From Porticoccaceae bacterium (GTDB lineage: Bacteria > Pseudomonadota > Gammaproteobacteria > Pseudomonadales > Porticoccaceae), in the NCBI GenBank assembly GCA_029250825.1, contig JAQXEN010000056.1, positions 1-64,000 of the forward strand: a DNA stretch of 64,000 nt. The letters run 5' to 3'. Within the stretch, counting starts at the first letter, position 1. Every line of letters starts with the position of its first letter. Below the pieces are notes generated by a model. That model did not search any database and had not been told where the DNA came from. It saw only the letters and a program-made list of their open reading frames with translations. Position numbers and translations under genes: made by a program. This document shows, one piece after another, positions 15,683-45,192 of this stretch.

Positions 15683-15836
15683 AGACTCTGAGGATAGTCT
15701 TGCGATCAATCAGGGCCTGCTTATGGGTGGCATTATTTTCAGGAAAAGAGAGCACTTGTCTGAGCGTCAGCGAGTTGTGGGAACGCTGAAAATAATGGCA
15801 GTCATGGGACCGATCGCAAGGCTATCCTCAGAGTTT
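15683..15836. repeat. Long-hairpin element B, copy 1
   Basis: A 154-base imperfect inverted repeat. Outer arms read ACTCTGAGGATAGTCTTGCG and CGCAAGGCTATCCTCAGAGT; a second paired segment is ATTATTTTCAG / CTGAAAATAAT; the core contains AGAGAGCACTTGTCTGAGCG and TCAGCG...CGCTGA. No coding potential and no transposase. Confidence 0.85.
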
Positions 15837-15869
15837 ATTGGCGCCCAACTTAGTGCCACAAACAGCAAT

Positions 15870-15905
15870 GAGATCCCTCGTCGCTTCGCTCTGTCGGGAT
15901 GACAG
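15870..15905 (-). repeat. Dispersed element A, half copy
   Basis: Same sequence and orientation as the copy at 15528, exactly one 342-base period later. Confidence 0.8.
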
Positions 15906-16024
15906 TAGTCGTGTCTTTTTTTGGCGGGGAAGTTGAAAGTCCTTAGACCTCAGACATCAGGCACAATCATAAAAATCTCGCCAGATCCATATCAAAGCAA
16001 TGTCAGCACTACGATAGTCCAGAT

Positions 16025-16178
16025 AGACTCTGAGCATAGCCTTGCGATCAATCAGGGCCCGCTTATGAGTGACATTATTTTCAGGAAAAGAGAGCACTTG
16101 TCTGAGCGTCAGCGAGTTGTGGGAACGCTGAAAATAATGACAGTCATGGGACCGATCGCAAGGCTATGCTCAGAGTCT
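16025..16178. repeat. Long-hairpin element B, copy 2
   Basis: Second copy, one 342-base period after copy 1. In the outer arm GAGGATAG of copy 1 is GAGCATAG here, and the opposite arm changes from CTATCCTC to CTATGCTC, which keeps the pairing. Confidence 0.85.
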
Positions 16179-16212
16179 ATGGGCGCCCAACTTAGATACC
16201 ACAAACCGCAAT

Positions 16213-16248
16213 GAGATCCCTCATCGCTCCGCTCAGTCTGGATGACAG
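16213..16248 (-). repeat. Dispersed element A, diverged half copy
   Basis: Third A copy in this block, with a few substitutions (TCATCGCTCC, AGTCTGGATGAC). It closes the A-B-A-B-A array 63 bases before the end of the DUF3422 gene. Confidence 0.75.
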
Positions 16249-16311
16249 TTACAGAGTTTCGGAGAACGTTGAAAACCCAACCCAACTAGATACAGGGCAA
16301 CGTTCTCAAAC

Positions 16312-17571
16312 TCACTTATCCAACTTATTGCGAATTCTCTTCACCAACATCAGCGCCCCAGTAAAGATAAACGGCGTAATAATCGCCAGCGCCATAGTCT
16401 TAGAAATCAACAAATATTGTTCGATAGGCAATGGCGCAATCAGCAGCTTAATCAGATTCATACTGTAGTAGGTCATAGCCACCACCGATAAACCCTCCAC
16501 CGTCTGCTGCAGACGCAACTGCAAAGCACTGCGCTTATCCATTGAAGCCAACAGACGCTGATTCTGTAACTCCAGCGATAACTGCAACCGCGAATTCAAC
16601 AGCTCAGTCGTCCGACTGATCCGTTTCGACAAATCCTCCTTGCGCTTAACCACCGACATACAGGTGTGAAACGCCGGAATAAAACGCCGCACATGAAATT
16701 GCTTTAACGTACGAAAGGTCGGCAGCTTCTGCTCTCGCAACATATCCAAACGACTCTCAGTCAAACTAAAGTAAGCCTGAGTCGCCGAAAAGCGAAAATT
16801 ATGATCCGCAACCAACTTCTCCAACTGAGTCGCCTCCTCAATCAACTCAGTCATCAACCTCTGCTCATCCTCCACCGTCTCCAGCAAATTGAGCTTCGCA
16901 TTGGTGCCCACCAACTGCCCCTCCAACTTAGTCACCGCTGGAATCAACTCACGGGCTATAGGCAGTGCCAGAAGCGTCATAGCCCGATAAGCAGCGATCT
17001 CCAACAGATTGCGGATCGCCCGACCGGCCTGCAATGCATCAATACCCTCATCCACCACCAGAGTGCGAATAAAGCCATCCGCATCATCCCGCACCGAAGT
17101 CCACACCGTCGCCAAACCATCATAAATCTTGCTGCCGACCAAACGCTTGCCATCAAAATAATCCTCCAACTGTTGCGGACTCAGGGAAGTCGGACGCAGA
17201 TCAATATGATTGGCCGCAATCACCTCACCGGACATCCCATCCAACCACTCAGCATCAATTAATGAAAACAGATTGCGGCACAGCTCACCCTCGGGCTGAC
17301 GCTGACAGATCACCGTGTAAGTTGAAAATTCATTGTGCCGTTCCCAGCGAAAATCAAACTCTTTAAAACTCTGGTAATAACAGCTTTCACCGGGCTGAGG
17401 TGGCGCAACATTGTCCCTGTTGGCTAGATCTGTGAGTCGATCGATTTCTGACTGGCGGTCGCCAGGATTGAGAAGCACCAGGCTAGAAACCTGAGCGGGT
17501 AAGTTTACCACCGGAAAATTACGGTTGTGAAGTTCTTTAATTAATGTATTTTTTTGTGGGTGGAATTTCAT
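16312..17571 (-). CDS. DUF3422 family membrane-anchored protein
   Basis: 419 residues. The N terminus fits the DUF3422 pattern (HPQKNTLIKELHNRNFPVVN, then RWERHNEFSTYTVI). The middle (about 210-350) is rich in heptad-like helices with many Leu/Glu/Arg, and two hydrophobic segments near the C terminus (about 355-410) would anchor it in the membrane, ending in a basic KRIRNKLDK tail. The family is widespread in proteobacteria and has no established function. It stands alone, with repeat DNA on both sides. Confidence 0.85.
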   Translation of the reverse strand: MKFHPQKNTLIKELHNRNFPVVNLPAQVSSLVLLNPGDRQSEIDRLTDLANRDNVAPPQPGESCYYQSFKEFDFRWERHNEFSTYTVICQRQPEGELCRNLFSLIDAEWLDGMSGEVIAANHIDLRPTSLSPQQLEDYFDGKRLVGSKIYDGLATVWTSVRDDADGFIRTLVVDEGIDALQAGRAIRNLLEIAAYRAMTLLALPIARELIPAVTKLEGQLVGTNAKLNLLETVEDEQRLMTELIEEATQLEKLVADHNFRFSATQAYFSLTESRLDMLREQKLPTFRTLKQFHVRRFIPAFHTCMSVVKRKEDLSKRISRTTELLNSRLQLSLELQNQRLLASMDKRSALQLRLQQTVEGLSVVAMTYYSMNLIKLLIAPLPIEQYLLISKTMALAIITPFIFTGALMLVKRIRNKLDK

Positions 17572-17620
17572 CTTGACTACCCCATTTATTATTTTTTTAA
17601 AATACAGTTCCTTTTTATAA

Positions 17621-17662
17621 CAAACTAATCTCTACAAGCTAATCGCTACAAACTAATTATTG
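17621..17662. repeat. 14-bp tandem repeat, three units
   Basis: Three 14-base units of the form CAAACTAATCTCTA lie just upstream of the DUF3422 start, in a 211-base gap with no gene. The third unit has diverged at its end. Confidence 0.65.
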
Positions 17663-17781
17663 CGGCGACTTAATACAAGCTTTTAACAACAATTTTAACC
17701 GCCAAAGTCCTAAAAAGTGCGACCACCAGTTCAATCGAATGGCAGCCGCACTTGATTCTCACTAAGACAACAGTCTATCAA

Positions 17782-18960
17782 TTACTCAGATTCAACAGTA
17801 AAAGTCAGACCTGCATTGGCCTGCAAGCGCTCAATCAATGCATTACCCATCGCCGGAGCCGAAGTCCAAATGCCACCGGAAGCCAACTCAGGATTGAGCA
17901 CCAAACAAACCGCACTCTCGGCAATCATCTTTGAAGTGGAACCGTAACCTGGGTCCATATCGCCTTTGACACTGACCCGCACCGAGCGACCATCGCTAGC
18001 TTCACCGATCAACAGCACATCATAATGGCCATTAACACGCTCATCGAGATCTGGGCCTTCGCCAGGTTGACGTGGATCATCCGCCATAGAGGTATCTTCA
18101 GTCACCGCCTTAGCAATAGCTTCACCGCGCTCACCGGGGCCGGTGATCAACATCTCATCGTAGACAAAGTCAGTGCCATAAGCATGACCCATCAACATGT
18201 TTGAACGATGAATATTCTTAGTGTTAATGCTTGCCATTACAAAGGGCGCAATCCAACTCTGCAGCGCCTCATCAAACTCAGGCTTATTACCCAGAGGCTG
18301 ATCAGCGCCAACAAAACCTTCAGTCAACGAAAACGGGTTGCGCAGCACATTGATCAGCTCGCGATCTTTGCCCGCCGCCGCCATAGTGGCGCGAAAACTC
18401 GCCAGCGTGCCGCCAGAAAAAGTACCCTTCATTGAACGTACACGACCCTTGGCACGAGGCACCATAGCACCCAATTTCTGCTCCGCCGTCTGCTGTAAAA
18501 ACAACACCCCCAGATCAAAGGGAACCGAATCAAAACCACAGGAGAAGACAATCCGTGCACCGCTGGCCTCAGCCGCTGCAGAGTGCGCCGCAATCATCTG
18601 ATGCATCCAGGCAGGCTCGCCACAGAGATCCACGTAATCAGTACCATGTGCAGCACAGGCTGCAACTAACTCATTGCCATAAAGCTGATAGGGACCCACA
18701 GTGGTCAAAATAACCTTACTGCTCAGCACCATTGCATCTATCGATGCCAAGTCAGCGGCATCCGCAACAACCAGCGGCACATCTGCAGAGATACCCATCT
18801 CGTCACGCACGGCCTCCAGTTTGGTCTGACTGCGTCCCGCCATAGCCCACTTAATCTCGCCATTGACACCGTATTGGTTATTCAGGTATTCCGCGACCAG
18901 CCGGCCAGTAAAACCAGTGGCACCGTAGACCACCAAATCAAAATCTCTGTTATTCTGCAT
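17782..18960 (-). CDS. Saccharopine dehydrogenase-like oxidoreductase (SCCPDH / trans-acting enoyl reductase type)
   Basis: 392 residues from the ATG at 18960. A Rossmann fold starts at once with FDLVVYGATGFTGRLVAEYL, followed by WAMAGRSQTKLEAVRDE, VILTTVGPYQLYGNELVAAC and YVDLCGEPAWMHQMI, all typical of the saccharopine-dehydrogenase-like family that includes mycobacterial trans-acting enoyl reductases. It is not a lysine-pathway enzyme by length or domain content. An upstream start at 19056 would add 32 residues unlike the family, so I prefer 18960. It diverges from the fadB-like gene; a role in lipid or acyl metabolism is possible. Confidence 0.85.
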   Translation of the reverse strand: MQNNRDFDLVVYGATGFTGRLVAEYLNNQYGVNGEIKWAMAGRSQTKLEAVRDEMGISADVPLVVADAADLASIDAMVLSSKVILTTVGPYQLYGNELVAACAAHGTDYVDLCGEPAWMHQMIAAHSAAAEASGARIVFSCGFDSVPFDLGVLFLQQTAEQKLGAMVPRAKGRVRSMKGTFSGGTLASFRATMAAAGKDRELINVLRNPFSLTEGFVGADQPLGNKPEFDEALQSWIAPFVMASINTKNIHRSNMLMGHAYGTDFVYDEMLITGPGERGEAIAKAVTEDTSMADDPRQPGEGPDLDERVNGHYDVLLIGEASDGRSVRVSVKGDMDPGYGSTSKMIAESAVCLVLNPELASGGIWTSAPAMGNALIERLQANAGLTFTVESE

Positions 18961-19148
18961 TGTTATTATTATCCCGTTGGAGTAAATGTTAAAATCGCTG
19001 TCGCAAAAGTATATCAGCCAACAGCGCAGAGGGGCTTGGAGAAAGTGACTGAGCAACCACCGACTTGGCTGAGCAGCTAAAAACGAGATAGATAAAAAAA
19101 GCAGCAGTAAAAAAAACTATTAATAAAAAATACTAATTGGGGAAAATT

Positions 19149-22440: not shown

Positions 22441-22449
22441 GCACTGCCT

Positions 22450-31561: not shown

Positions 31562-31710
31562 ATCATCTCGACAGAGCCTCCATGTGTCATCTCGATAGAG
31601 CCTCTATATGTCATCTCGATAGAGCCTCTATATGTCATCTCGACAGAGCGCAGCGACGAGAGATCTTATGCCACTTACTACAAGATCTCTCACATGCGTT
31701 CGAGATGACG
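31562..31710 (+). repeat. Element A with three extra iterated ends
   Basis: Three 24-base units starting (G/A)TCATCTCGA(C/T)AGAGCCT run directly into a full element A whose left half is at 31634 and whose right end, TTCGAGATGAC, is at 31699-31709. The units look like repeated copies of the element's left end. Confidence 0.8.
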
Positions 31711-31748
31711 AGGAAGTGGTTCGAGATAACAAACAGAGCCCCTTTTAT

Positions 31749-31783
31749 GTCATCCCGACAGAGCGCAGCGACGAGGGATCTCT
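31749..31783 (+). repeat. Dispersed element A, left-half copy
   Basis: GTCATCCCGACAGAGCGCAG followed by CGACGAGGGATCTCT. It ends 53 bases before the giant propeller gene. Together with the preceding array it fills the 412-base gap; no gene seen there. Confidence 0.85.
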
Positions 31784-31835
31784 AACCCTCCATAACAACG
31801 CAAATCCTACCAGACAACCCACCAGCAAGACGCCA

Positions 31836-34800
31836 CTACAAAGCCGGCTTTAGGCTCTCAATCTTCGCCTCAATATCCGCTGCAGAAGATCGGCTTGCAT
31901 TATCTGCCACTACGCCATCAATCAACGTCTCCCCTCGCAGACCAAATAGATAGCGCAACACCACAAGCCCGTCAGTCAGAGCATCTGCATTCCCATCGCC
32001 GTCTATATCGATCAGCTCGCCGAGCATATCTATTCTTGCAATCACCGCTTCGGACGTGGAGTGGACTGCACCCGCACCTATCGCATTGCTGATCAGCGCA
32101 GAGTCGGAGAGCTCAAACATCGCCCTCAAAAGCAACAAACCATCGGTGAGAGCGTCGTAATTACCGTTTCCATCTATATCCAATGAACCTGCAGGAATAG
32201 TGTCTGCGAAAAACTCATCGAGAGACGAGACACCGTCGCCATCCTGATCAGCTGCAGCATCTTCAGAATCATTTGGATCCAAACCATAATTGATCTCCCA
32301 AATATCCGGCATGCCATCAGCATCCGAATCCTTGGTGTACAGGGCATTCTCCGGAAATGCATCAGCATTATTACCAATGCCATCAAGATCAGTATCCAGT
32401 GTCTCAGAGGCATCCAGAGGGAAGGCATCCATCGGCAGAGAGCTTGCATCAAGTCCTTCATAATGTGTTACCCAAGCGACATTATCGAGGCGATACACTA
32501 TCTCCGTATCCTGCCCCTCAAGCAAATGACTAATCGAAAATGGAGACTGCACAAAGAAAAAACCAAACTGTGGCTCAAACTCATAGAGCGGGATAGTAAT
32601 AGTGGACCAGACTCCAACCTCCTCAACAGTGAAAGGCTTCGGCTGAAAGCCAAAGTCCTGCAGCAGGTTAAGACTGAATAGGTTATCAGTTGGCGCTTCA
32701 ATCACCTTGATATCAAATCTAATAAAGCCATTGGTGATGCTACTCAGGTTTTGAGACGCCGTAGCAGCTATCAGCAGCATCGATCCCTCACCCGTCTCAT
32801 AGGGCTGATGACGGACTTCTAAAACACTGCTGCGATCACCATCAGCAACAAAGTTCCAGTCAAGCTTGGTGCAATCTAGACCTACAGCCTCCCCTACAAC
32901 ATAGCCACAGGGCTGAGTATTACCGGAACTGTCATTTTCAAGACCCAGCAATCCAAAATCCCATCTACTGGAAAGATCACCCTCCCTCAAGACGATAATT
33001 TCAGAAAAATCTCCAGCACCATCGTTATCATCATCGGGATCCGCGTTATTGCCTATACCGTCTGAGTCCGTATCCAGAGTCTCTGTTCCATCGAGGGGAA
33101 AAGCATCCGCCACTTCGGTAAGGCGATAAATTGCAATGCGGCCCGCCTGCTCGAAGCCACCAATGGCCCCAGTTGCAACAATTTCTCCATCATCAGACAG
33201 GGACTGGGACCAGCCGTTATAATCGGCCATCATGGTGCCAGAAATAGATTGCCCCTGTTGAATCCAGCCTTGTGCCGCGCCATCCCAATCGTAGATCTCC
33301 ACATAACCCATACCGGGTCCCAAGGCGCCTTGGAAGGCACCAATTGAGATTCTAGACCCATCAGCTGAAAGACTGGTTGACCAACCGAAAAAATCCCCCT
33401 CAGCAACACCGTCAATATCCTCTCCCCGCTGCACCCATCCAGCAGAGTTATCATAGGAATAAATCCGCACATGGCCCGCGCCAAAGCCAGTGGCATAGCT
33501 ATTATTGAGGAACGCACCGACCGCGACAATCGATCCATCATCTGAAATCGACACCGAACTGCCACTTCTATCGCCAGCAGCCTCGCCATTAATATCCTCG
33601 CCACGCTGAATCCACAGCTGATTGATTTCACTCCAGGCATAGACACGCAGATGACCCGCATCAAGACCACTTGCATCGTTACCCTGCCCGCCCACCGCCA
33701 TAAAAGATCCGTTAGCGGTTAGATCAAAGTCATAGCGACCAATTAGATCACCCGCCGCTTCGCCATCTATAAATTGGCCACGCTGAAGCCAACTTTCACC
33801 ATCCCAACGATAAACCCTAACCTGTCCCGCATCCTCAGCATTGCCCTCATCGCCGTCATAAAAAGGCGCTGCAATCGCCAAAATACTGCCATCTGCGGAT
33901 AACTTAGTGCCATTCCCGGTGCCATCCCCGAGTGCCTCACCGGCAATATCGTCGCCCCGCTGGATCCAACTTTCCCCATCCCAAGCGAAGACACGAATGA
34001 CCCCCGCAGGCACCTCACAATCGAGACAGGCCCCGCCAAAGGCTAGAACAGACCCGTCACTGGAGAGTGATGGAGAGAAACCAATACGCTCAAGTTCAAC
34101 CTGTCCAAAAAGGCTTTGACCGCGCTGAACCCAAGCTTGGCCATCAAAGGCATAGACACGAACCCGACCCGTATCAATGCCGTTTTCATCGTTGCCCATA
34201 GCGCCAATGGCAATAATAGAGCCATCGGCTGATAGGGTTACTCTGCCCGCAAGGTCTTCGACATTCTCGCCACCAATATCCCCACCCAATTGCACCCAGC
34301 GACTTATATCCGGCACACCATCGTTATCATCGTCGAGATCAGCATTATTGCCCACCCCATCTAGATCCGTATCTACAGTCTCATTGACATCCAGAGGGAA
34401 CTCATCCAACTCATCGACAACACCGTCGCCATCATTATCCGGATCGGCATTATTGCCTATGCCATTTAAATCCGTATCCAGAGTCTCTGTCGCATCCAAG
34501 GGAAAGGCATCCGCTGGGCCAAGAGCATAAACTGCAACCCGGCCTGCCAATTCAGCGCCACCGGTCGCCCCAGTTGCAACAATTACACCATTGTCAGACA
34601 GAGACTGAGACCAGCCGTTAAAGTCGATCTCACTAGAGCCAAATATCGATTGCCCCTGTTGAACCCAGCGCTGCGCCGCCCCATCCCAGCTGTAAATAGC
34701 TACATAACCCAAAATCAATTCCGTACCGCCTTGGGTGGCGCCAATTGAGATCCTCGAGCCATCAGCTGAAAGACTGGTTGACCAACCGAAAGAATCCCCG

Positions 34801-37406
34801 GCACCAGCGCCATCAATATCATCACCCCGCTGTACCCATCCAGCAGAGGTATCATAGGAATAAATCCGCACATGGCCCGCATCTAAGCCATTGCCATCAT
34901 TGAGGAATGCCCCCACTGCGACAATCGATCCATCATCTGAAATCGACACTGAACTGCCACTTTCATCGCCAGCAGCCTCACCGTCTATATCTTGACCACG
35001 CTGTATCCACAGTTGATCATTTTCGCTCCAGCCATAGACACGTAGATGTCCCGCATCAGGCCCACTTGCATCATTGCCCTGACCGCCAATCGCCAAAAAG
35101 GATCCGTCAGCGGCTAAATCAAAGTCATATCGACCAATGCGGTCACCCGCCGCCTCACCTTCTATATATTGGCCGCGCTGAAGCCAACTTTCACCATTCC
35201 AGCGGTACACTCTAACCTGCCCCGCATCCACAGCAGTGCCCCCATTGGTGTCGTAAAAAGGCGCTGAAATCGCCAAAGTGCTGCCATCTGCGGATAACTT
35301 AACCCCATTGCCGACACCATCACCGAGAGTCTCACCGGCAATATCGTCGCCCCGCTGAATCCAACTTTCCCCATCCCAAGCGAAGGCGCGAACAACCCCC
35401 GCAGGTACTTCACAATCGAGACAGGCCCCGCCAAAGGCCAGAACAGACCCATCACTGGAGAGAGACAAAGAGAAACCTAAGCGCTGAATTTCGGCCTGCC
35501 CATAAAAGCTTTGGCCACGCTGAACCCAAGCCTGACCATCAAAGGCATAGACGCGAACCCGACCCGATTCAGCGCCGTTTTCATCGTTGCCAATAGCGCC
35601 GACGGCAATAACAGAGCCTTCAGCTGAAACCGTTACTCTGCCCGCTAAGTCTCCGACATTCTCGCCACTAATATCCCCACCCAGTTGCTCCCAGCTGCCG
35701 GTATCAGCCACACCATCATTGTCATCATCAGGGTCGGCATTATTGCCCACCCCATCTAAATCCGTATCGACGCTCTCGCTGGCATCCAAGGGAAACTCAT
35801 CCAACTCATCGACAACACCGTCACCATCATTATCCGGATCAGCATTATTGCCTATGCCATCTGAATCCGTATCCAGAGTCTCTGTCGCATCCAGGGGAAG
35901 GGCATCCGGCGCTCCTGTATGGGCATAAATTACAACCCGGCCTGCATATTCGACGCCATCAGCGAATCCAGCGGCGCCAGCGGCAATAATTTCTCCATCA
36001 TCAGACAGGGACAGGGACCAACCGTTTAAATTGTTCTCGGCGTTGCCAAATATAGATTGGCCCTGTTGAATCCAGCGCTGTGCCGCGCTATCCCAGCTGT
36101 AAATATGCACATAACCCACACTTAGTACCGTGTCGCCTTGAATGGCGCCAATTGCGACCCGAGATCCATCGGCGGAAAGACTGGTTGACCAACCGAAGGA
36201 GTCACCGGCACCAGCACCGTCAATATCATCACCCCGTTGCACCCATCCAACAGAGGCATCATAGGAATAAATCCGCACATGGCCCGCGCCAAAGTCACTG
36301 CCATTATTGAGGAACGCACCGACCGCGACAATTAATCCATCATCTGAAATTGATACCGAACTGCCACTTCCATCGCCATCAGCCTCACCCTCAATACCCT
36401 CGCCACGCTGAACCCAAAGTTGATTGATTTCACTCCAGGCGTAGACACGCAGATGACCCGCATCAAACCCACCTACATCACTACCCTGTGCGCCAATCGC
36501 CAAAAAAGATCCATCAGCGGTTAAATCAAACTCATAGCGACCAAGTCGGTCACCCGCCGCTTCGCCATCTATATATTGGCCACGCTGAACCCAACTCTCA
36601 CCGTCCCAACGGTAAACCCTAACCTGTCCCACATCCTCAGAATTGCCATCATCGCCGTTATAAAAAGGCGCTGAAATCGCCAAAATGCTGCCGTCTGCGG
36701 ATAACTTAGTGCCATTGCCGGTGCCATCCCCGAGTGCCTCACCGGCAATATCCTCGCCCCGCTGGATCCAACCTTCCCCATCCCAAGCGAAGACTCGAAT
36801 GACCCCCGCAGGCATCTCACAATCGAGACAGGCCCCGCCAAAGGCTAGAACAGACCCGTCACTGGAGAGCGAAGGAGAGAAACCAATACGCTCAAGTTCA
36901 ACCTGTCCAAAAAGGCTTTGACCGCGCTGAACCCAAGCTTGACCATCAAAGGCATAGACACGAACCTGACCCGTATCAATGCCGTTTTCATCGTTGCCCA
37001 CAGCGCCAATGGCAATAATAGAGCCATCGGCTGATAGCGTTACTCTGCCCGCCAGATCTTCGGCATTTTCGCCATTGATACTCTGCCCCAACTGCTCCCA
37101 GCTACCCGCATCAGGCACACCATCGTTGTCATCATCGGGGTCGGCATTATTGCCCACCCCATCTAAATCCGTATCCACAGTCTCACGGGCATCCGAGGGG
37201 AAATCATCCAGCTCATCGACAACACCGTCGCCATCAGAATCAGTGTCCGAGTTTGCAGGCTCCAAAAGACTAGACCCATTAGGATCTGCATTGATAACAT
37301 AAGACGCAAGGTCGTTATCAAGGGCAGGGGTTAACCCAGATAGCGTCAGAAAATACAGGCTGAAGAGTAATTTGGGTAAGTGGCTTCTTATAGTTAGAGC
37401 TTTCAT
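31836..37406 (-). CDS. Giant secreted triple beta-propeller (integrin-alpha/FG-GAP-like) protein with TSP3 and dockerin-like repeats
   Basis: 1856 residues with a signal peptide (about 1-29). Three near-copies of a ~465-residue unit (starting near residues 54, 522 and 987) each have a Ca-binding TSP3 segment (DGDGVVDELDEFP) and then six to seven blades of the type LSADGSxxAIGA...GHxRVYxWDG...WVQRGxDIDGEAAGD. A fourth TSP3 segment (~1440) precedes a jelly-roll-like domain (~1475-1640), more TSP3 (~1660-1735), and two dockerin-like EF-hand duplexes (DIDGNGNYDALTDGLLLLR, DIDGDGNADALTDGLVVLR). Likely a cell-surface or released Ca-dependent adhesion or scaffold protein. No C-terminal anchor is evident. 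Alone in its operon. Confidence 0.88.
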   Translation of the reverse strand: MKALTIRSHLPKLLFSLYFLTLSGLTPALDNDLASYVINADPNGSSLLEPANSDTDSDGDGVVDELDDFPSDARETVDTDLDGVGNNADPDDDNDGVPDAGSWEQLGQSINGENAEDLAGRVTLSADGSIIAIGAVGNDENGIDTGQVRVYAFDGQAWVQRGQSLFGQVELERIGFSPSLSSDGSVLAFGGACLDCEMPAGVIRVFAWDGEGWIQRGEDIAGEALGDGTGNGTKLSADGSILAISAPFYNGDDGNSEDVGQVRVYRWDGESWVQRGQYIDGEAAGDRLGRYEFDLTADGSFLAIGAQGSDVGGFDAGHLRVYAWSEINQLWVQRGEGIEGEADGDGSGSSVSISDDGLIVAVGAFLNNGSDFGAGHVRIYSYDASVGWVQRGDDIDGAGAGDSFGWSTSLSADGSRVAIGAIQGDTVLSVGYVHIYSWDSAAQRWIQQGQSIFGNAENNLNGWSLSLSDDGEIIAAGAAGFADGVEYAGRVVIYAHTGAPDALPLDATETLDTDSDGIGNNADPDNDGDGVVDELDEFPLDASESVDTDLDGVGNNADPDDDNDGVADTGSWEQLGGDISGENVGDLAGRVTVSAEGSVIAVGAIGNDENGAESGRVRVYAFDGQAWVQRGQSFYGQAEIQRLGFSLSLSSDGSVLAFGGACLDCEVPAGVVRAFAWDGESWIQRGDDIAGETLGDGVGNGVKLSADGSTLAISAPFYDTNGGTAVDAGQVRVYRWNGESWLQRGQYIEGEAAGDRIGRYDFDLAADGSFLAIGGQGNDASGPDAGHLRVYGWSENDQLWIQRGQDIDGEAAGDESGSSVSISDDGSIVAVGAFLNDGNGLDAGHVRIYSYDTSAGWVQRGDDIDGAGAGDSFGWSTSLSADGSRISIGATQGGTELILGYVAIYSWDGAAQRWVQQGQSIFGSSEIDFNGWSQSLSDNGVIVATGATGGAELAGRVAVYALGPADAFPLDATETLDTDLNGIGNNADPDNDGDGVVDELDEFPLDVNETVDTDLDGVGNNADLDDDNDGVPDISRWVQLGGDIGGENVEDLAGRVTLSADGSIIAIGAMGNDENGIDTGRVRVYAFDGQAWVQRGQSLFGQVELERIGFSPSLSSDGSVLAFGGACLDCEVPAGVIRVFAWDGESWIQRGDDIAGEALGDGTGNGTKLSADGSILAIAAPFYDGDEGNAEDAGQVRVYRWDGESWLQRGQFIDGEAAGDLIGRYDFDLTANGSFMAVGGQGNDASGLDAGHLRVYAWSEINQLWIQRGEDINGEAAGDRSGSSVSISDDGSIVAVGAFLNNSYATGFGAGHVRIYSYDNSAGWVQRGEDIDGVAEGDFFGWSTSLSADGSRISIGAFQGALGPGMGYVEIYDWDGAAQGWIQQGQSISGTMMADYNGWSQSLSDDGEIVATGAIGGFEQAGRIAIYRLTEVADAFPLDGTETLDTDSDGIGNNADPDDDNDGAGDFSEIIVLREGDLSSRWDFGLLGLENDSSGNTQPCGYVVGEAVGLDCTKLDWNFVADGDRSSVLEVRHQPYETGEGSMLLIAATASQNLSSITNGFIRFDIKVIEAPTDNLFSLNLLQDFGFQPKPFTVEEVGVWSTITIPLYEFEPQFGFFFVQSPFSISHLLEGQDTEIVYRLDNVAWVTHYEGLDASSLPMDAFPLDASETLDTDLDGIGNNADAFPENALYTKDSDADGMPDIWEINYGLDPNDSEDAAADQDGDGVSSLDEFFADTIPAGSLDIDGNGNYDALTDGLLLLRAMFELSDSALISNAIGAGAVHSTSEAVIARIDMLGELIDIDGDGNADALTDGLVVLRYLFGLRGETLIDGVVADNASRSSAADIEAKIESLKPAL
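33000..37250 (-). repeat. Three ~1.4-kb intragenic tandem repeats
   Basis: The segment coding for DELDEF recurs at about 37204, 35797 and 34402, giving periods of 1407 and 1395 bases. Long stretches are nearly identical at DNA level between units 1 and 3, suggesting duplication followed by gene conversion. Confidence 0.85.
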
Positions 37407-38237: not shown

Positions 38238-39698
38238 ATGGCCAATACTGAGCTATCGCGCCGACGGTTTCTAAAAAAATCCTCACAGCTTTCACTGGCT
38301 ACCGCCGCTGCGGTCAACTCTATGGGTATGCTCGGGCTGCTCGGAGCCAGCCAAAGTCTCGCCGACTCCACTGATCACAAAGCCCTAGTGTTTATTATGC
38401 TGACCGGCGGCAATGACTCCTACAATATGCTGGTGCCCACTGGCGACAATCAATTGCGCCGCAACTATGAAAACCATCGCGGCGTAGTCGCCCTGCCAGA
38501 AGCCGACCTGCACAGCCTGCAACTTGCCAGTCCGGCCGCGGTTTATACTGGTAACGATAGCCCCCCTACCAGCTCAACTGAATTTGCCATGCATCCAGCC
38601 TGCCCCGCTATGGCCGAACTATTTAACAGTGGTGAACTGGCAGTAATTTGTAATACCGGAAATCTCATTGAGCCTACCAGCAAAGTACAGTTCGACAACG
38701 GCGGTGTTGCGCTGCCACCGCAGCTGTTCTCTCACTCTGACCAACAGCGCCAGTTACAGAGTGAACCTAGCAATCCGTTCCGCTATGGTTGGGGCGGCCG
38801 CATGGCCGAGCTACTCAGCGATTACAATTTAGATAACAATGTATCACCATTAATTGCCGTGGGCGGACTCAACTCCTTTCAAGTAACCCAAGACGGTCTT
38901 ATCAATAGCTACAGCCTTGGCAACAGTGGTGCACCCTCCCTCTATGGATACTACGGCGCGAGTCAGCAGATACTGGAAGCCTCGATGCAGTCAATTGATG
39001 CACAGGCCCATCTTATGGCACAAAAATATCGCAGCACCTTTGACTCTGCCATTAAAGCGCAAAGCATTGTTCAAGGTGCTTTTGCTCAAGCCGAGTCACT
39101 GGGTGTCGACTACGATGGCATCTTTGCAGCAGCCGGCGCCGTCGCGACAAACAATTCCACTAAACGGCTTATCACCGTTGCCAAAATGATCGCCGGACGC
39201 TCGCTGACCAACAATCAGCGACCGGTGTACTTTGTTGAAATACCCGGTTTTGACAATCACCAAAACTTGCTCAGCGACCATCATGATTTAATGGCCGAAC
39301 TCAATGCCGCACTCAAGGGTTTTCACGATGTACTCGTGGCACAGGGTGATTTTGATCAGGTACTCACCCTAGTCGGCTCTGAGTTTGCCCGCACCTTTAC
39401 CCCCAATGGCGAAGATTCAGAAGCCGGCACCGATCACGGCTGGGGAGGCCACAGCATGGTGATGGGCGGCATGATCAATGGCGGTCAACTATTTGGCACC
39501 CACCCAGATCTGGCCTTAGATCAGGGACTCGATACTGGACGCGGACGCTGGATACCCACCACCACAAATTCCCAGTGCTCAGCGGTTGTGGCTCACTGGA
39601 TGGGCATTCCACAAAACCAGATAAACCAGCTGTTTCCCTCCCTAGAAAATTTTGCCAGCCCGTTTGATGCCACCTCTAACCTCGACTTTATTACCTAG
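38238..39698 (+). CDS. DUF1501 family protein with Tat signal
   Basis: 486 residues. A twin-arginine signal (SRRRFLKKSSQLSLATAAA) marks export in folded form. The body has the DUF1501 features FIMLTGGNDSYNMLVP, FAMHPACPAM, VICNTGN, and EFARTFTPNG followed by DHGWGGHSMVMGG. The fold is related to the alkaline-phosphatase/sulfatase type. Family members almost always sit beside a DUF1800 gene, as here, 13 bases apart; their joint function is unknown. GGGGAA lies before the ATG. Confidence 0.92.
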   Translation: MANTELSRRRFLKKSSQLSLATAAAVNSMGMLGLLGASQSLADSTDHKALVFIMLTGGNDSYNMLVPTGDNQLRRNYENHRGVVALPEADLHSLQLASPAAVYTGNDSPPTSSTEFAMHPACPAMAELFNSGELAVICNTGNLIEPTSKVQFDNGGVALPPQLFSHSDQQRQLQSEPSNPFRYGWGGRMAELLSDYNLDNNVSPLIAVGGLNSFQVTQDGLINSYSLGNSGAPSLYGYYGASQQILEASMQSIDAQAHLMAQKYRSTFDSAIKAQSIVQGAFAQAESLGVDYDGIFAAAGAVATNNSTKRLITVAKMIAGRSLTNNQRPVYFVEIPGFDNHQNLLSDHHDLMAELNAALKGFHDVLVAQGDFDQVLTLVGSEFARTFTPNGEDSEAGTDHGWGGHSMVMGGMINGGQLFGTHPDLALDQGLDTGRGRWIPTTTNSQCSAVVAHWMGIPQNQINQLFPSLENFASPFDATSNLDFIT

Positions 39699-39711
39699 GA
39701 CTTTAGCCAGC

Positions 39712-42393
39712 ATGCTTAGATTAAATCAGTGCGGATTATTACTCAGCGGTTTTTTACTGATCAGCTGCGGCGGTGGCGGTGGCGGTGGCAGTGGCGGTTC
39801 TTCAGAGCCTATAGCGCAACCGAACCCGCCACCAGAAAAACCCACAGTCTCACTTAGCTCAGTCACAGAGCAAGCTTATGAGAAGAGCAATCAGATCGCC
39901 AAATTTAAGCTTGAGCGCAGCAGTTCAACATCTCAATTAAGCATTAAATACAGCATTAGCGGCGACGCCGATATCACCAAGGGCTCTGCCAGCAGCAATG
40001 ACTACCAACTCATCTATAGCGACGACAACAGTGCCGTGGGTGCCAACTTTGAAATCGGTGCCAACCAAACCTATCGAATTATTGAAGTGATACCGGTCAA
40101 TGACAGCCAGCACGAAGTGCCGGAGAGATTGATTTTTACACTGAGTGCAGATTCTGCCTACAGCATTGCCAGCGACCGAGAGAGCGTCAGTTTAACCATT
40201 AGCGACGCCGATAACTCCATTGCCAATGGCAGAGTTTTTATTGGCTCATTTGCACCTCAGGGCGGCGCCACCACTATCGGCAATGGGCAGCTCAGCTTTA
40301 TTCTACAGGGCGACAACGACAATGGCCTGCTGAGTTACAGTTTCTCCAATCTCGGCAGCCAACAGACCGATCAGCATATCCATCTAGCGCCCTCCGGCAC
40401 CATGATTAAAGATATTGAGACCCTCGGCAATCTGTCTAACTTTGACTGGGATTTAGCCCCAGGGGGTATTTTTCGCACTGAACAGGAAATGCTCGATACG
40501 CTGTTTGATGGCAGTTTTTATGTCAATATCCACAGCGCCAACTACCCCTCTGGAGAGATCTCTGCCCCGCTCTCCTATCAGGCCTCAGTGATCCCGGAAA
40601 CCCCTACCGAGCTCAGCGCAGAAGAAGTCGATCAGGATATACTGCGTTTTTTAAATCAAGCAACCTTCGGCGCGACACCGCAGCAGTATCAGCAGCTAAG
40701 AGCTCAGATAGATAGCGACGGCGACAACCGACTGGTGGTTTACCAGCAGTGGATTGATCAACAGATCGGCACGCCTCAGACTAGCCTGTTGGCGCTGACC
40801 GACGCCACCCTCGAAAAATTTGGCAACGATGATATTAGCGTCACTCGTGATCGCGATGAACCGGGTGAGAATATTCGCAGCGATAGCTTCTGGCCCATCG
40901 CACTCTATGGCCGCGACCAACTGCGCCAGCGCATGACCTTTGCCCTCAGTGAAATTCTAGTGATCAGCGACCAGGATGCAGGTGTCCGCAGAGCCTACCG
41001 AGGCACCGCAGACTACTGGGATATGTTGGCCAGAAATGCCTTTGGCAGCTATAGCGAGACCCTCGAGCAGGTGACTCGACACCCTATAATGGGAACCTAT
41101 CTAAGCCACCTCAGCAACCAAAAAGCGGATCCGGAGAGCGGCTATTATCCCGATGAAAACTATGCCCGCGAAGTGATGCAGCTGTTCACCTTTGGTCTTG
41201 TTCAGCGGCGTCAAAATGGATCAATTATCCTCGGTGAGAACAACCTGCCGATACAGACCTATGACAATAGCGTGATCAAAGATATGGCTCGAGTGTTTAC
41301 CGGCTTATCCTTCAGTCACATAGCCAATAGCAGTGGTGAAAAGGTCGCCAATAATAATTTCTTCCGCGGCAACAATGCCAATGACTATCAATTTCGCTGG
41401 ATAGAACCGATGAAGTTTTTTGCCGACTATCACGACTATGAGGCCAAGGTACTGTTTTCCGACAATGGCAACAGGCTGACTATTGCCTCTGGGGACCCAT
41501 CGGATCCCAGTTCCGCAGACAGTGAATTAACCGGTCTAATGAACAATCTGGTGGCCCACAGCAGCACCGCGCCCACCATTGCCCTCAAGCTAATCCAGCG
41601 CTTTGTCACCTCCAACCCCAGCCCTGAGTATATAGAGCGAGTAGCCAATGCCTTTGGCACCGAAGGAGATCTCAACGCCACCATCAAAGCCATACTCCTA
41701 GATGCCGAAGCGCGCAATCCCGCGGTCGCCAGCTCACTGACCTTCGGCAAAATCAAAGAGCCAATTTTAAAGTTCAGTGCACTGTTGCGACTACTCCAAG
41801 CCGGCTCATACATACCCCTGGGCAGTTCTAACGACGACGCCATCAATGGCTTAAATTACTCTCAAGCCGACCAGTTTGATGATGGCGCAACCCTGCTCCG
41901 CGCCGGCACACCGGCACTTGGGCAGCGGGCCTTAGCCGCGCCATCGGTGTTCAATTTCTTTTCCCCCGACTTCTCGCCATCTGGCGCTCTGTCGCGCAAT
42001 GCATTGGTCTCACCAGAACTTCAGTTAACCACCGAAAGTCAGCTTTTTGATAGCTTTAATAGCCTGTTTTTATTGCTCGACGATCGCTTCTATCGCGACA
42101 ATGCCTTTGTAAAGTTCAATACAAACTTCAGCCTAGAGCAATTGATAATACGTTTGGACTTCAGCCGTTTAGACAATATTTGGAACAGTACCCAGGGTTC
42201 CGACAGTGACAGAGCCACTGCAGTGGTAGATTATTTAGACTTCTACCTCAATGCCGGCCAACTGGCTGCCGCAGGCAATAATGTCACTCGGGAAGCAATG
42301 ATCAGTAATATCGCCGCGGTAAGCGATGAGTATCGTTACGGCTTGGCGGTCTATGCCGCGGGCAACACCGCTGAGTTTCAATTGCAGAAATAA
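39712..42393 (+). CDS. DUF1800 lipoprotein with Calx-beta-like and CHRD domains
   Basis: 893 residues from the ATG at 39712; an earlier start at 39652 would overlap the DUF1501 gene and spoil the signal. Lipobox LISC (Cys 19) is followed by a polyglycine run, a Calx-beta-like domain (about 40-175), a CHRD domain (about 180-295, with DQHIHLAPSG and FYVNIHSANYPSGEISAPL), and a DUF1800 domain (about 315-890, starting FLNQATFGATPQQYQQL, with NYAREVMQLFTFGL). It is coupled to the DUF1501 gene. Probably an outer-membrane or surface lipoprotein; DUF1501/DUF1800 pairs have no settled role. Confidence 0.9.
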   Translation: MLRLNQCGLLLSGFLLISCGGGGGGGSGGSSEPIAQPNPPPEKPTVSLSSVTEQAYEKSNQIAKFKLERSSSTSQLSIKYSISGDADITKGSASSNDYQLIYSDDNSAVGANFEIGANQTYRIIEVIPVNDSQHEVPERLIFTLSADSAYSIASDRESVSLTISDADNSIANGRVFIGSFAPQGGATTIGNGQLSFILQGDNDNGLLSYSFSNLGSQQTDQHIHLAPSGTMIKDIETLGNLSNFDWDLAPGGIFRTEQEMLDTLFDGSFYVNIHSANYPSGEISAPLSYQASVIPETPTELSAEEVDQDILRFLNQATFGATPQQYQQLRAQIDSDGDNRLVVYQQWIDQQIGTPQTSLLALTDATLEKFGNDDISVTRDRDEPGENIRSDSFWPIALYGRDQLRQRMTFALSEILVISDQDAGVRRAYRGTADYWDMLARNAFGSYSETLEQVTRHPIMGTYLSHLSNQKADPESGYYPDENYAREVMQLFTFGLVQRRQNGSIILGENNLPIQTYDNSVIKDMARVFTGLSFSHIANSSGEKVANNNFFRGNNANDYQFRWIEPMKFFADYHDYEAKVLFSDNGNRLTIASGDPSDPSSADSELTGLMNNLVAHSSTAPTIALKLIQRFVTSNPSPEYIERVANAFGTEGDLNATIKAILLDAEARNPAVASSLTFGKIKEPILKFSALLRLLQAGSYIPLGSSNDDAINGLNYSQADQFDDGATLLRAGTPALGQRALAAPSVFNFFSPDFSPSGALSRNALVSPELQLTTESQLFDSFNSLFLLLDDRFYRDNAFVKFNTNFSLEQLIIRLDFSRLDNIWNSTQGSDSDRATAVVDYLDFYLNAGQLAAAGNNVTREAMISNIAAVSDEYRYGLAVYAAGNTAEFQLQK

Positions 42394-42396
42394 AAA

Positions 42397-42425
42397 GCGG
42401 GCAAATATCTGTAGATATTGCCCGC
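42397..42425. terminator. Bidirectional terminator between the convergent DUF1800 and sulfatase genes
   Basis: Stem GCGGGCAAATATC / GATATTGCCCGC with a TGTA loop. On the minus strand it is followed by TTTTT, ideal for ending the sulfatase transcript. On the plus strand it begins 3 bases after the DUF1800 stop. Confidence 0.85.
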
Positions 42426-42484
42426 CAAAATAAACTTTTCCCACCCTCGACTATCACTCACAGTGGACTCTCGCTCACAATGGA

Positions 42485-44746
42485 TTAATTAAAACTCGGA
42501 TCCATCTGCCCTTTTAAACAGCCCATAATGTAAGGGTAAGCGTCGATAACAAAATACCCATAGACGCCACTTACCTGCATACCATTGCATTCGTCGAGAT
42601 CACCGAGACCCTCAACATACTCATAGTCATCCCTAAAAGTGCCATCATAATCACCGCTTGGTGTCGTATAACCGCCTATGGCCTGACGAGCACCGGCCTT
42701 TAGCCTATAGCTCGACAGGGCTTTTCGCACAGTGCCATTATCATCAAACCAGCTGCCAAAAATTGGAAAGCCATCGGCGGCAAAGCCGACTACTGGAGAC
42801 TCCACAGCGGTATCCTTAGCAAACATTGCATTCGGCGTGCCATGATAATGATAACTGCCATTGGGCTGAACATGGGCATTGTGACTGTCCACCCTAAAGC
42901 CATTAGCCGCAAACATAGGATCAAAACGCCACGGCTGTGACATATCGCCACAGCCGGTTTTTTCATCGCCGACAGCAAAACAGGCCGCTGCAAGCAGATC
43001 AATTTTGACCCCATTCAGCATAAGTCCGTTGTCATTGCCAATGGCCAGCGCGGTATTGGTGCTGGCAAATACTGGGCTGGTGGTTATCTGGTAGTTATAA
43101 GCTTGCTCACTCAGATTGGTCGGAAAGCTCTGCTGCCCATCATTAAAATCATGATTGGGTACACCGTTTGACTGTAGCCGGCATTTTCCTGCGCTAGTTG
43201 AAATCGTCAGATTGCCGGAAAACAGCACAGAGCGAAAAACATCCATAGCGGTCGATTGGTAGCTGGCAATATAGTCCTCGCAGTTAGCGCTGCGCTGAGT
43301 AAATATATCCCCGGTAATATCGATCGCCAGAGTTTCCCCATCGCCCCCGGTATCGGTATCGGTATCACGAATCACCGTAGCCACCGCCGCAAGCTGCTCA
43401 ACAATAGCTGAATAGTCGCTGGAACCGCCAACCAAGTTATCAGTTTCAAGCGGATCAGAGAGCATATCATAGAGCTGCATTTGCCCATCGATAGTGGCGA
43501 TCAGCTTGTATTGAGCGTCACGGATTGCCCAGCCGGAAGCCGATTCAGCCTCAAAATCACTGTATATATAGTCTCTTTGATCAGCGTCAGCATTGGTCAG
43601 CAAGCCTTTAAAGCTCTGACTGTCCTCTAGAGCAGTGATACTGCTGCCGGCTAAATTGGCGATGGTGGCAAAAAAGTCGCTGCTATTAATTAGCGCAGTT
43701 TCGCGAACATTCAGTCGCGACACACCGGCCCCAGAGACCACCATGGGCACCCGCAGTCCGCCTTCTGTCAAACTGCCCTTGCTGCCATTGCCATAGACTG
43801 AGGCATCCACCACCCGCCGTGGAGTGCCATTATCGCCAATATAGAGAATAATCGTATTGTCTAACTCAGCCTCAGTCAGAGTTCCCAACAGGCGACCAAT
43901 TTCACTGTCCATCGCTTCAATGGCCGCTAGATAGTAGGCACGTGGATTAGCCTCAATATCTGCTTCCGTTCCCGATAGAGTCTGAGTATGCAGCGCAGCC
44001 GGGGGCAGGTGAAAAGGACTGTGGGGAGCCACATAGGCGAGCCACAAAAACCAAGGCTGAGCCTGATCATCTATCCAGTCGATCGCCAAGTCGGTTATGG
44101 CACTACTGTGATACTCAGTGGAGACAGTCGTCTCGCCGTTAATCGTCAGATCCCACTGATTGTAATCACTGATCGCCCCAAGCAGATTACCGGCAAAATA
44201 ATCAATACCCACCGTTGCGGGATGACTGGCATCCGGCGGCGTGCCACTCAGATGCCACTTGCCAATCACAGCGGATTGGTAGTTATCGGTATTTTCGTCA
44301 CTGGCGAGAAAGCGTTGCAGGGTCAGGGCGTCGTCGGGCAATTTGTCGCCCACATCAAGCACCCCAGAATTAACCCCATACTGACCAGTAATCATGGTAC
44401 TGCGTGTTGTGGTACAGGCCGGAGTCGCCCAGGCGTTGTCAAAGATAATACCCTGAGATGCCAGCTGATTAAGCGTTGGGGTAACCGGAAGATCAGAGCT
44501 AAGGGCGTATTGCGCCGAGGCATCGAGACCCTGATCATCAGCAATAATCAGAAGAATATTGGGCTGGTCTGGAGTCGTATCGGTCTCTGGGTTACTGCCA
44601 CTATTATCGCCGGTCAAATCCCCATCCGTTATCGGGTCCCCTTGGCCAACAGATCCACTTCCACTTCCACTTCCACTTCCGCCTCCGCCACAACCCAATA
44701 GTAATAATGACAGTAACGTAACCACTAACGGAGCTGAAGTAATCAT
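42485..44746 (-). CDS. Sulfatase-YHYH fusion lipoprotein
   Basis: 753 residues. Lipobox LLGC (Cys 19) plus a Gly/Ser run marks a lipoprotein. The sulfatase domain (about 62-465) has ILLIIADDQG, VIGKWHLSG, APHSPFH, LYIGDNGTPRR and KGSLTEGGLRVPMVVSG. The formylglycine site reads CTTTR (Cys 111), with Thr where the usual CxPxR has Pro. The C-terminal part (about 480-753) is a YHYH domain (NGSYHYHGTPNAMF, GFAADGFPIFGSWFD). It should remove sulfate esters outside the cytoplasm, perhaps from marine polysaccharide, but the altered site makes activation uncertain. AAGGAT lies before the ATG. Confidence 0.9.
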   Translation of the reverse strand: MITSAPLVVTLLSLLLLGCGGGGSGSGSGSGSVGQGDPITDGDLTGDNSGSNPETDTTPDQPNILLIIADDQGLDASAQYALSSDLPVTPTLNQLASQGIIFDNAWATPACTTTRSTMITGQYGVNSGVLDVGDKLPDDALTLQRFLASDENTDNYQSAVIGKWHLSGTPPDASHPATVGIDYFAGNLLGAISDYNQWDLTINGETTVSTEYHSSAITDLAIDWIDDQAQPWFLWLAYVAPHSPFHLPPAALHTQTLSGTEADIEANPRAYYLAAIEAMDSEIGRLLGTLTEAELDNTIILYIGDNGTPRRVVDASVYGNGSKGSLTEGGLRVPMVVSGAGVSRLNVRETALINSSDFFATIANLAGSSITALEDSQSFKGLLTNADADQRDYIYSDFEAESASGWAIRDAQYKLIATIDGQMQLYDMLSDPLETDNLVGGSSDYSAIVEQLAAVATVIRDTDTDTGGDGETLAIDITGDIFTQRSANCEDYIASYQSTAMDVFRSVLFSGNLTISTSAGKCRLQSNGVPNHDFNDGQQSFPTNLSEQAYNYQITTSPVFASTNTALAIGNDNGLMLNGVKIDLLAAACFAVGDEKTGCGDMSQPWRFDPMFAANGFRVDSHNAHVQPNGSYHYHGTPNAMFAKDTAVESPVVGFAADGFPIFGSWFDDNGTVRKALSSYRLKAGARQAIGGYTTPSGDYDGTFRDDYEYVEGLGDLDECNGMQVSGVYGYFVIDAYPYIMGCLKGQMDPSFN

Positions 44747-44883
44747 GGAATATCCTTGCCATGCAGTTTTTATAGGTTTTTAGCTTCAGCGATACAACGC
44801 CACAGTCTAGATAGGGTTGACCCAGAAATAGAGTATTTTATGACAGGGAATAGCAGCAATAGTCTTGGCTGAAACAGATTAAA

Positions 44884-44975
44884 GAGATCCCTCGTCGCTG
44901 CGCTCAGTCGGGATGACAGGTTAAGAGGCTCAGTGGGGACGACAGGTTAGGAGGCTCAGTCGGAATAACCTGACA
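44884..44975 (-). repeat. Element A half copy with iterated 26-bp ends
   Basis: A minus-strand element A (44884-44919) is extended by 26-base units GTCGGGATGACAGGTTAAGA... at 44907 and 44933 and a decayed third at 44959. The unit is the reverse complement of that at 51146. Confidence 0.75.
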
Positions 44976-45035
44976 ACAAGCTCTGGCGTAGTAGCATTAA
45001 ACAATAATAGCTCCAGCAGTACCGCAATAATCCCT

Positions 45036-45192
45036 ATAGACCCTTGCCATACCCTTGCGATCAATTAAGGCCCGTTTATGGGAGTCATTATTTTCAGAAA
45101 AAGAGAGCACTTGTCTGAGCGTTAGCGAGTTGTGCGAACGCTGAAAAGAATGGCACCCATGGGACCGATCGCAAGGGTATGGCGAGGGTCTA
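45036..45192. repeat. Long-hairpin element B, copy 3
   Basis: Arms GACCCTTGCCATACCCTTGC and GCAAGGGTATGGCGAGGGTC enclose the same core as copies 1 and 2 (AAGAGAGCACTTGTCTGAGC). Outer-arm bases differ from the other copies on both sides together, so the hairpin is kept. Part of a 657-base gene-free stretch (44747-45403) that holds only repeats. Confidence 0.85.

What the first reader, a model, noticed from the sequence alone, without database searches (positions are those of the whole stretch)
15683..45192. Element B: ~155-bp dispersed hairpin whose arms co-vary between copies
Copies at 15683-15836, 16025-16178 and 45036-45192 share an almost fixed core (GAGAGCACTTGTCTGAGCG) while the outer stem changes on both sides together: GGATAG/CTATCC, GCATAG/CTATGC, and a CCATAC/GTATGG version in copy 3. 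Compensatory change implies selection on the folded form, in RNA or as a DNA cruciform. No transposase is encoded, and I do not recognise a described family. It could be a non-autonomous mobile element, a structured RNA, or a binding site for a nucleoid or transposase-like protein.
Basis: partly seen in the sequence, partly recalled or inferred. Interest (0 to 1): 0.8.

Follow-up and report, generated by a model that had tools for sequence, protein, structure and literature searches.

The report
Widespread folded hairpin element, function unknown
Short stretches of DNA scattered between genes of marine bacteria keep the same folded hairpin shape although their letters change, which points to natural selection on the folded single strand; what makes or uses the fold is not known.

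Summary
The three copies are real; the genome has seven. A covariance model finds the element in 22 of 50 genomes of the genus. A core model matches 36 of 390 genomes of the order, 30 of them outside the genus, in 10 other genera. Pairing is overwhelming: 96.7% of cells pair and 34 of 57 pairs show changes on both sides that keep the pair; in other genera 36 of 40. G-T pairs outnumber A-C mismatches 269 to 52, so the strand written in the window is the folded one. Unpaired motifs are nearly fixed: bulge ARTCA in 85 of 91, bulge GYTT in 82 of 91, cap GCGAGTT in 83 of 91. At the hisA-like/DUF3422 junction 7 genomes carry it and 18 have a short empty junction: it was inserted, then kept. Its right end faces the 3' end of a gene in 73 of 90. 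No Rfam match above threshold. In this genus it fails the REPIN tests I could run. Best reading: a non-autonomous hairpin element moved in trans, its folded strand under selection. A multicopy RNA is a serious rival; transcription is untested.

The parts
15678..15841 (+). Element copy 1 (hairpin), model positions 1-164
   Evidence: R1 covariance match, 168 bits
16020..16183 (+). Element copy 2 (hairpin), model positions 1-164
   Evidence: R1 match, 178 bits; fold z -10.1
45033..45196 (+). Element copy 3 (hairpin), model positions 1-164
   Evidence: R1 match, 177.6 bits
16050..16054 (+). AATCA bulge on the 5' arm of copy 2, a near-fixed unpaired motif
   Evidence: read; at the aligned columns A[AG]TCA in 85 of 91 copies of the genus and AATCA in 26 of the 33 copies of other genera that reach these columns
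16061..16064 (+). GCTT bulge on the 5' arm of copy 2, second near-fixed unpaired motif
   Evidence: at the aligned columns GCTT or GTTT in 82 of 91 copies of the genus and 24 of 33 elsewhere
16098..16118 (+). Apical cap TTGTCTGAGCG-TCA-GCGAGTT of copy 2 (GAGC/GCGA with a GNA or GNNA loop)
   Evidence: 3' half GCGAGTT in 83 of 91 copies at the aligned columns; TG[TC][CT]TGAGC somewhere in 86 of 91, TGT[CT][TC]GA in 33 of 33 elsewhere; loop counts
16006..16019 (+). Short upstream flank that belongs to the element in part of the copies; -10-like hexamer ending just before the stem (copy 2 shown)
   Evidence: >=4 of 6 matches to TATAAT at offset -7 in 26 of 63 non-redundant copies, z 5.5 against other offsets, no -35
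15870..15903 (+). REP-like palindrome GAGATC..GGATGACA downstream of copy 1, same orientation as in other copies
   Evidence: read; within 150 nt downstream in 32 of 91 copies in this orientation and 0 of 91 in the other
16213..16246 (+). REP-like palindrome downstream of copy 2
15512..16153 (+). 342-bp tandem duplication that holds copies 1 and 2
   Evidence: the repeat finder family D9, 96% over 300 bp
14673..15431 (+). Upstream neighbour, His_biosynth family protein (hisA-like), convergent with the next gene
   Evidence: Pfam PF00977, E 6.5e-27
16312..17571 (-). Downstream convergent neighbour, DUF3422 protein; its 3' end faces the right end of copy 2
   Evidence: Pfam PF11902, E 3.5e-128

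Best explanation
The element is a non-autonomous, hairpin-based dispersed element, similar in behaviour to a REPIN or MITE but with a different and much larger fold. SHOWN: the strand written in the window folds alone into a stem of about 57 pairs with two near-fixed bulges and a near-fixed cap. Stem sequence changes freely but pairing is kept. It was inserted at a junction that is short and empty in relatives, and copies are then inherited at the same places. Its right end mostly faces the 3' end of a gene. INFERRED: a protein (or protein-RNA complex) supplied in trans recognises bulges and cap on the folded single strand and has copied it to new places. In at least one genome of another genus (G540) a RAYT-type HUH nuclease may carry it inside a REP pair. 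In the window's genus I found no mobiliser common to the hosts, so the fold is probably kept by a second use in the host, such as protein binding or shielding of 3' ends. Whether the recognised strand is ssDNA or RNA is open.
For: Covariation: 34 of 57 pairs and 36 of 40 pairs in other genera, both far above shuffled and slid controls. Strand asymmetry: GT 269 against AC 52 in 91 copies; GT 47 against AC 13 in other genera. Insertion: 7 filled (one cut by a contig end) and 18 empty hisA-like/DUF3422 junctions among 27 genomes with the DUF3422 gene; in 2 the neighbour was not found. Retention: 23 locus groups shared by 2 to 6 genomes, 11 groups in one genome only. In 30 non-overlapping orthologous pairs, 132 pairs changed on both sides against 23 expected, 121 of them still pairing. 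Mobile-element habits: tandem arrays, outward-pointing inverted pairs (12 of 12 listed), 3'-end preference (73 of 90), flanking REPs. In G540, 6 of 8 examined copies lie between inverted GGGGAC..GTCCCC palindromes, 1 between degenerate ones; one such palindrome lies in a Y1-transposase locus of that genome.
Against: No mobiliser tested is shared by the hosts. Among 22 element-bearing genomes of the genus (several incomplete), Y1 transposase is in 5, reverse transcriptase in 1 and TnpB in 0. No target-site duplication of 7 nt or more was seen (3 of 64, chance 2.0), and there is no conserved terminal repeat: the outer stem is the most variable part. Long retention with an intact fold in genomes without a detected Y1 gene is more than a passive mobile remnant should show. 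How common the GGGGAC palindromes are elsewhere in G540 was not counted.
Confidence: 0.5

Rival explanations
1. It is a multicopy functional RNA: each copy is transcribed from its own -10-like element at the foot of the stem, and the RNA acts in trans, for instance as a protein-binding or protein-titrating RNA.
For: Single-strand asymmetry favouring G-U. Near-fixed unpaired motifs in this genus and in others of the order. Kept at orthologous places with compensating changes. A -10-like hexamer at a fixed offset in 26 of 63 copies.
Against: No -35, and no such hexamer in the other 37 of 63 copies. Terminator-like sites downstream in only 6 of 91. Not found in 28 of 50 genomes of the same genus. 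Four-base loops are GNYA in 41 of 48, not the GNRA that stable RNA loops prefer, although a competing CUG/YAG pairing could also favour Y there. No transcription data were available.
Confidence: 0.3
2. It is a true REPIN: a REP pair moved by the genome's own RAYT.
For: REP-like palindromes flank many copies. In G540 most examined copies lie between inverted palindromes, one of which is also in a Y1 locus; in G479 of the same genus a Y1 locus holds three related ones. Inverted pairs occur. GTAG/GTGG is somewhat frequent at the right foot (16 of 64, control 7).
Against: GTAG/GTGG foot on both arms in 1 of 64 copies, left foot 3 (control 3). Strict cap in 0 of 28 fetched Y1 loci. No Y1 gene detected in 17 of 22 host genomes of the genus, including the single-contig G023 with 17 listed copies. 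The conserved part is inside and the variable part outside, the reverse of a REPIN as defined in the passages I saw.
Confidence: 0.1
3. The arms stay complementary through a copying error process (template switching inside a palindrome) without selection on the fold.
For: Long stems, apparent in-place inversions, and distant orthologues with many double changes and few broken pairs.
Against: Close orthologues (>=90%) show more broken single changes (35) than kept double ones (18), as expected for mutation followed by compensation. The process should erase the near-fixed bulges and could not make GT exceed AC by five to one.
Confidence: 0.07

Closest known systems
REP / REPIN elements of RAYT (TnpA-REP) transposases
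   Same: Non-coding, dispersed, intergenic, hairpin-forming, often flanked by or paired with REPs, no own gene (definition seen in passages of PMC3686654, and PMC8049555).
   Different: Core of about 130 nt with near-fixed unpaired motifs and a variable outer stem; GTAG/GTGG on both feet in 1 of 64; no Y1 gene detected in 17 of 22 host genomes of the genus.
MITEs (non-autonomous DNA transposons; definition recalled)
   Same: Small, no gene, inserted at a site that is empty in relatives.
   Different: No conserved terminal inverted repeat and no detected target-site duplication of 7 nt or more.
Dispersed structured RNAs such as HEARO and IMES (names recalled, not fetched)
   Same: Covarying structure, many copies, conserved unpaired motifs.
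   Different: No Rfam 15 match at the gathering score in the window. In six loci of the genus (E<=10) and eight of other genera (E<=1) the only matches over the element are microRNA-type ones far below threshold, such as mir-3036 28.2 of 70 bits and MIR1437 51.3 of 168.
Integron attC sites (box motifs recalled)
   Same: Imperfect single-strand hairpin with unpaired signature bases.
   Different: The two box motifs occur together in 0 of 64 copies on either strand.

Membership tests
REP/REPIN | 5'-terminal GTAG or GTGG tetranucleotide at the palindrome foot (both arms for a REPIN) | tested here: not met
   both arms in 1 of 64 non-redundant copies; left 3, right 16, controls 3 and 7
REP/REPIN | Same sequence flanks the cognate RAYT gene | tested here: not met
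   strict cap in 0 of 28 fetched Y1 loci: all 9 of the genus and 19 fetched of the 45 others listed. In G540 a flanking palindrome, not the hairpin, lies in a Y1 locus
REP/REPIN | RAYT present in the host genome or its close relatives | tested here: inconclusive
   Y1 family in 5 of 22 element-bearing and 3 of 28 other genomes of the genus
MITE | Conserved terminal inverted repeats | tested here: not met
   the outer stem varies most, 19 of its 27 pairs with double changes; stem starts fall in many types
MITE | Target-site duplication | tested here: inconclusive
   direct repeats >=7 nt in 3 of 64 flank pairs, 2.0 by chance; shorter ones not tested, and copies look old
Known Rfam RNA family | Score above the curated threshold | tested here: not met
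   window at gathering score: 0 matches; 14 loci at E<=1 or 10: nothing above threshold over the element
omega-RNA of TnpB/IscB | Adjacent or resident TnpB-like nuclease | tested here: not met
   PF07282 in 0 of 22 element-bearing genomes of the genus; IscB not searched separately
Integron attC | RYYYAAC and GTTRRRY boxes at the two ends | tested here: not met
   0 of 64 on either strand
Trans-acting small RNA | Own promoter, terminator and transcript | tested here: inconclusive
   -10-like site in 26 of 63, terminator-like sites in 6 of 91; transcript not testable with these tools

The most novel reading that the evidence does not exclude
An order-wide class of structured nucleic acid, with near-fixed AATCA and GYTT bulges and a tandem-GA cap, that spreads as a copied hairpin through an unrecognised trans-acting machinery and is then kept by host selection; its recognised form may be a folded single DNA strand rather than RNA.
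Probability: 0.3. Interest if true: 0.85.

Novelty: new variant of a known kind. Interest (0 to 1): 0.62.

Why it matters
To my knowledge (recalled) few bacterial repeat families combine such covariation with near-fixed unpaired motifs across several bacterial families. If the fold is recognised by a protein, that protein should be widespread in the order, and the three enzyme families tested here (Y1 transposase, reverse transcriptase, TnpB) do not fit in this genus. The element also offers a natural test of how dispersed hairpins pass from mobile to host-maintained, because empty, filled and apparently flipped versions of the same junctions exist in relatives.

Tried and rejected
RAYT/REPIN: rejected for the genus. 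Reverse transcriptase as common mobiliser: PF00078 in 1 of 22 genomes of the genus. TnpB: 0 of 22. attC: 0 of 64. DNA cruciform as sole form: against the GT/AC asymmetry. Lagging-strand ssDNA transposition: not supported. The folded strand has the negative GC skew in 26 of 39 clear cases (4 unclear), 12 of 16 in G023 and 7 of 10 in G018, so it is rather the leading-strand template; this is confounded with the antisense-to-gene orientation, and loci shared by relatives were not removed. Kink-turn reading of the cap: the tandem G-A pairs fit but the neighbouring pair does not (by eye); not pursued. Plasmids and phages: no match to one g47 copy. Viral contigs: no match to the core word. An Alcanivorax small-RNA paper (PMC9788540, passages only) had nothing usable; its sequences were not compared. 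Literature: six exact cap words occur in 4 papers that look unrelated by title; the listings show no description of this element. The main text of a REP survey (PMC12306157, passages) does not hold GAGCG. PMC library only.

A mistake and its repair: one search took window copy 3 as if it lay at the hisA-like/DUF3422 junction; one search repeats the count without it, and only one search is used for totals. One search counted bulge motifs anywhere in a copy; one search counts them at the aligned columns and replaces it for the bulges. In one search, 72 of 163 rows are the same places read on the other strand; I used the 91 true copies and dropped the 72 (of the stored alignment's 150 rows, the first 91). 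Some 'orthologous' pairs may be separate insertions at one junction.
Full report
What was checked. The three copies are present as described. They share the core word exactly, and their arms differ on both sides together. Copies 1 and 2 are parts of a 342-bp tandem duplication, so the window itself offers two independent units. Copy 2 folds far better than shuffled sequence (z -10.1).

How many and where. blastn finds 6 copies in the own genome and a covariance model a seventh. In the genus, 22 of 50 genomes have matches at E<=1e-3 (14 of 30 good ones); many genomes are incomplete. In the order, the core model R2 has matches in 36 of 390 genomes, 11 of 142 genera; 6 of the 36 are of the own genus. 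Only 8 candidates per genome were scored there, so copy numbers are lower bounds. I read copies with both bulges in six other genera (g47, g328, g58, g4, g74, g82). Those I read in g20, and one in g27, share mainly the cap; g59 and g332 were not read. In the class search 12 of the 368 other genomes match at E<=1e-4, the best at 62 bits and the rest at 46 or less.

Anatomy. From the foot: a variable stem of 27 pairs, the AATCA bulge on the 5' side, a short helix, the GYTT bulge, a second variable stem, an internal loop, then a cap TGTYTGAGC-loop-GCGAGTT. At the aligned columns of the 91 copies of the genus, the first bulge is A[AG]TCA in 85, the second GCTT or GTTT in 82, and the cap's 3' half GCGAGTT in 83. 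Of 38 copies from other genera and families, 33 reach the bulge columns: AATCA in 26, GCTT or GTTT in 24. TGT[CT][TC]GA is in 33 of 33 full-length ones. The helix between the bulges changes between genera and stays paired (helix 2, 99.4% paired).

Covariation. On 36 copies, 96.7% of 2040 cells pair, against 82.2% when shuffled and at most 39.9% when slid; 34 of 57 pairs have double changes and the score is 0.421 against 0.141. On 38 rows from other genera the values are 95.1% against 63.6%, 36 of 40 pairs, 0.668 against 0.163. [quoted passage not shown] Rows are related, so the shuffles are not probabilities.

Which strand. If both DNA strands folded, G-T on one strand would be as frequent as A-C. 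In 91 copies the counts are GT 269, AC 52, other mismatches 144, Watson-Crick 4668 of 5133 cells; GT exceeds AC in 39 pairs and is lower in 9. One near-fixed T-G pair supplies 55 of the 269. With that pair left out the asymmetry holds in all four gene contexts (96 to 21, 65 to 24, 37 to 4, 12 to 1), and it holds in other genera (47 to 13). So the + strand alone is the selected form, as RNA or as single-stranded DNA.

RNA or DNA. For RNA: the -10-like hexamer at a fixed distance in 26 of 63 copies. Against: no -35, terminator-like sites in 6 of 91, and loop statistics. Of 48 four-base loops 41 are GNYA and 7 GNRA; 31 more are GNA three-base loops, 3 copies have a two-base match and 9 did not fit the pattern. 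GNRA is the common stable RNA loop, while d(GNA) loops are very stable in DNA (PMC5815330, passages; PMC11101458, passages and reference titles). That GNNA is a stable DNA loop is recalled. A competing CUG/YAG pairing could also explain the Y, and the copies are related. I leave the question open.

Insertion and retention. The hisA-like and DUF3422 genes are convergent. Among 27 genomes with the DUF3422 gene, 7 carry the element there (one cut by a contig end), 18 have a short junction of 15-93 printed bases without it, and in 2 the hisA-like gene was not found in the fetched stretch. So it entered one lineage. 80 fetched stretches plus the window (joined by hand to its group) fall into 23 locus groups shared by 2 to 6 genomes and 11 found in one genome only. 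In 30 non-overlapping orthologous pairs: 121 double changes that keep the pair, 69 single changes that keep it, 63 that break it, 11 double that break it; 132 double changes against 23 expected if sides were independent. Close pairs show more broken singles (35) than kept doubles (18), distant pairs the reverse (28 and 103). That fits mutation followed by compensation. Some distant pairs may be separate insertions at one junction.

Neighbourhood. By a simple ORF rule, the gene to the right reads towards the element in 73 of 90 copies (one more has no such neighbour); the convergent arrangement is commonest (39) and the divergent one rarest (4). With duplicates removed and both neighbours at least 130 aa, it is 31 of 37. 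Twelve inverted pairs within about 1.3 kb can be read from the listings, and all twelve point outward; those listings are incomplete. Orientation appears flipped between relatives at some loci. REP-like palindromes lie within 150 nt downstream in 32 of 91 copies, always one way round (0 of 91 the other), and upstream in 19 and 18; the background is 72 and 41 of 1936 windows (related copies not removed).

Mobiliser. Y1 transposase is in 8 of 50 genomes of the genus, 5 of them element-bearing; none was found in the single-contig G023, which has 17 listed copies. Reverse transcriptase: 1 of 22. TnpB: 0 of 22. In 20 chosen genomes, 17 of them outside the genus, 16 have a Y1 match. None of the 28 Y1 loci fetched (9 of the genus, 19 of the 45 others listed) carries the strict cap. 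In G540, 6 of 8 examined copies lie between inverted GGGGAC..GTCCCC palindromes, one between degenerate ones and one without. One of these palindromes lies in a Y1 locus of that genome, about 1.1 kb from the match, and a Y1 locus of its relative G479 holds three related ones. No background count was made. So a RAYT may carry the hairpin there as REPIN cargo; this is inference from position.

Verdict. A real, strongly selected hairpin family found in several families of the order, which I could match to no described family in Rfam or in my literature searches. It works like a REPIN or MITE in dispersal but fails defining tests of both that I could run. Its partner and its polymer (RNA or DNA) are unknown.

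Noticed in passing
window 31633-31791, 51197-51240, 58480-58862: Dispersed REP-like palindromes, for example TGTCATCCCGACTGAGCGCAGCGACGAGGGATCTC (family D11), share the GAGCGCAGCGA tip with the element's cap.
   Followed up: partly
window 44883-44969 and 51146-51232: 87-nt inverted repeat, 91% complementary, built of these REP-like units, about 6.2 kb apart.
   Followed up: no
window 31836-37406 (-): 1856-aa ORF with repeats of about 177 nt and three large repeats about 1.4 kb apart (families D1-D6, D8, D10).
   Followed up: no
window 42485-44746 (-): Predicted protein joining a sulfatase domain with a YHYH domain.
   Followed up: no
G264, G304, G352, G420, G443: The cap word occurs in these other genomes of the class in 9 listed inverted pairs about 180-330 nt apart, all pointing outward, in other hairpins; the listing is partial.
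   Followed up: partly
L049-L053: Y1-transposase genes of the genus have GGGGTCAGA- or TCTGACCC-type words at one or both flanks.
   Followed up: no
L357 (G540) around 1527-1673: The hairpin core looks inverted relative to its own outer flanks compared with sister copies, as if the arms had recombined.
   Followed up: no
L175 (G030 contig C26 end): A copy whose pairing runs on for 28 more bases to the contig end; possibly an assembly fold-back.
   Followed up: no
3' end of the hisA-like gene in G057, G069, G000: Tandem repeats of about 18 bp derived from the end of the gene lie between its stop and the element.
   Followed up: no
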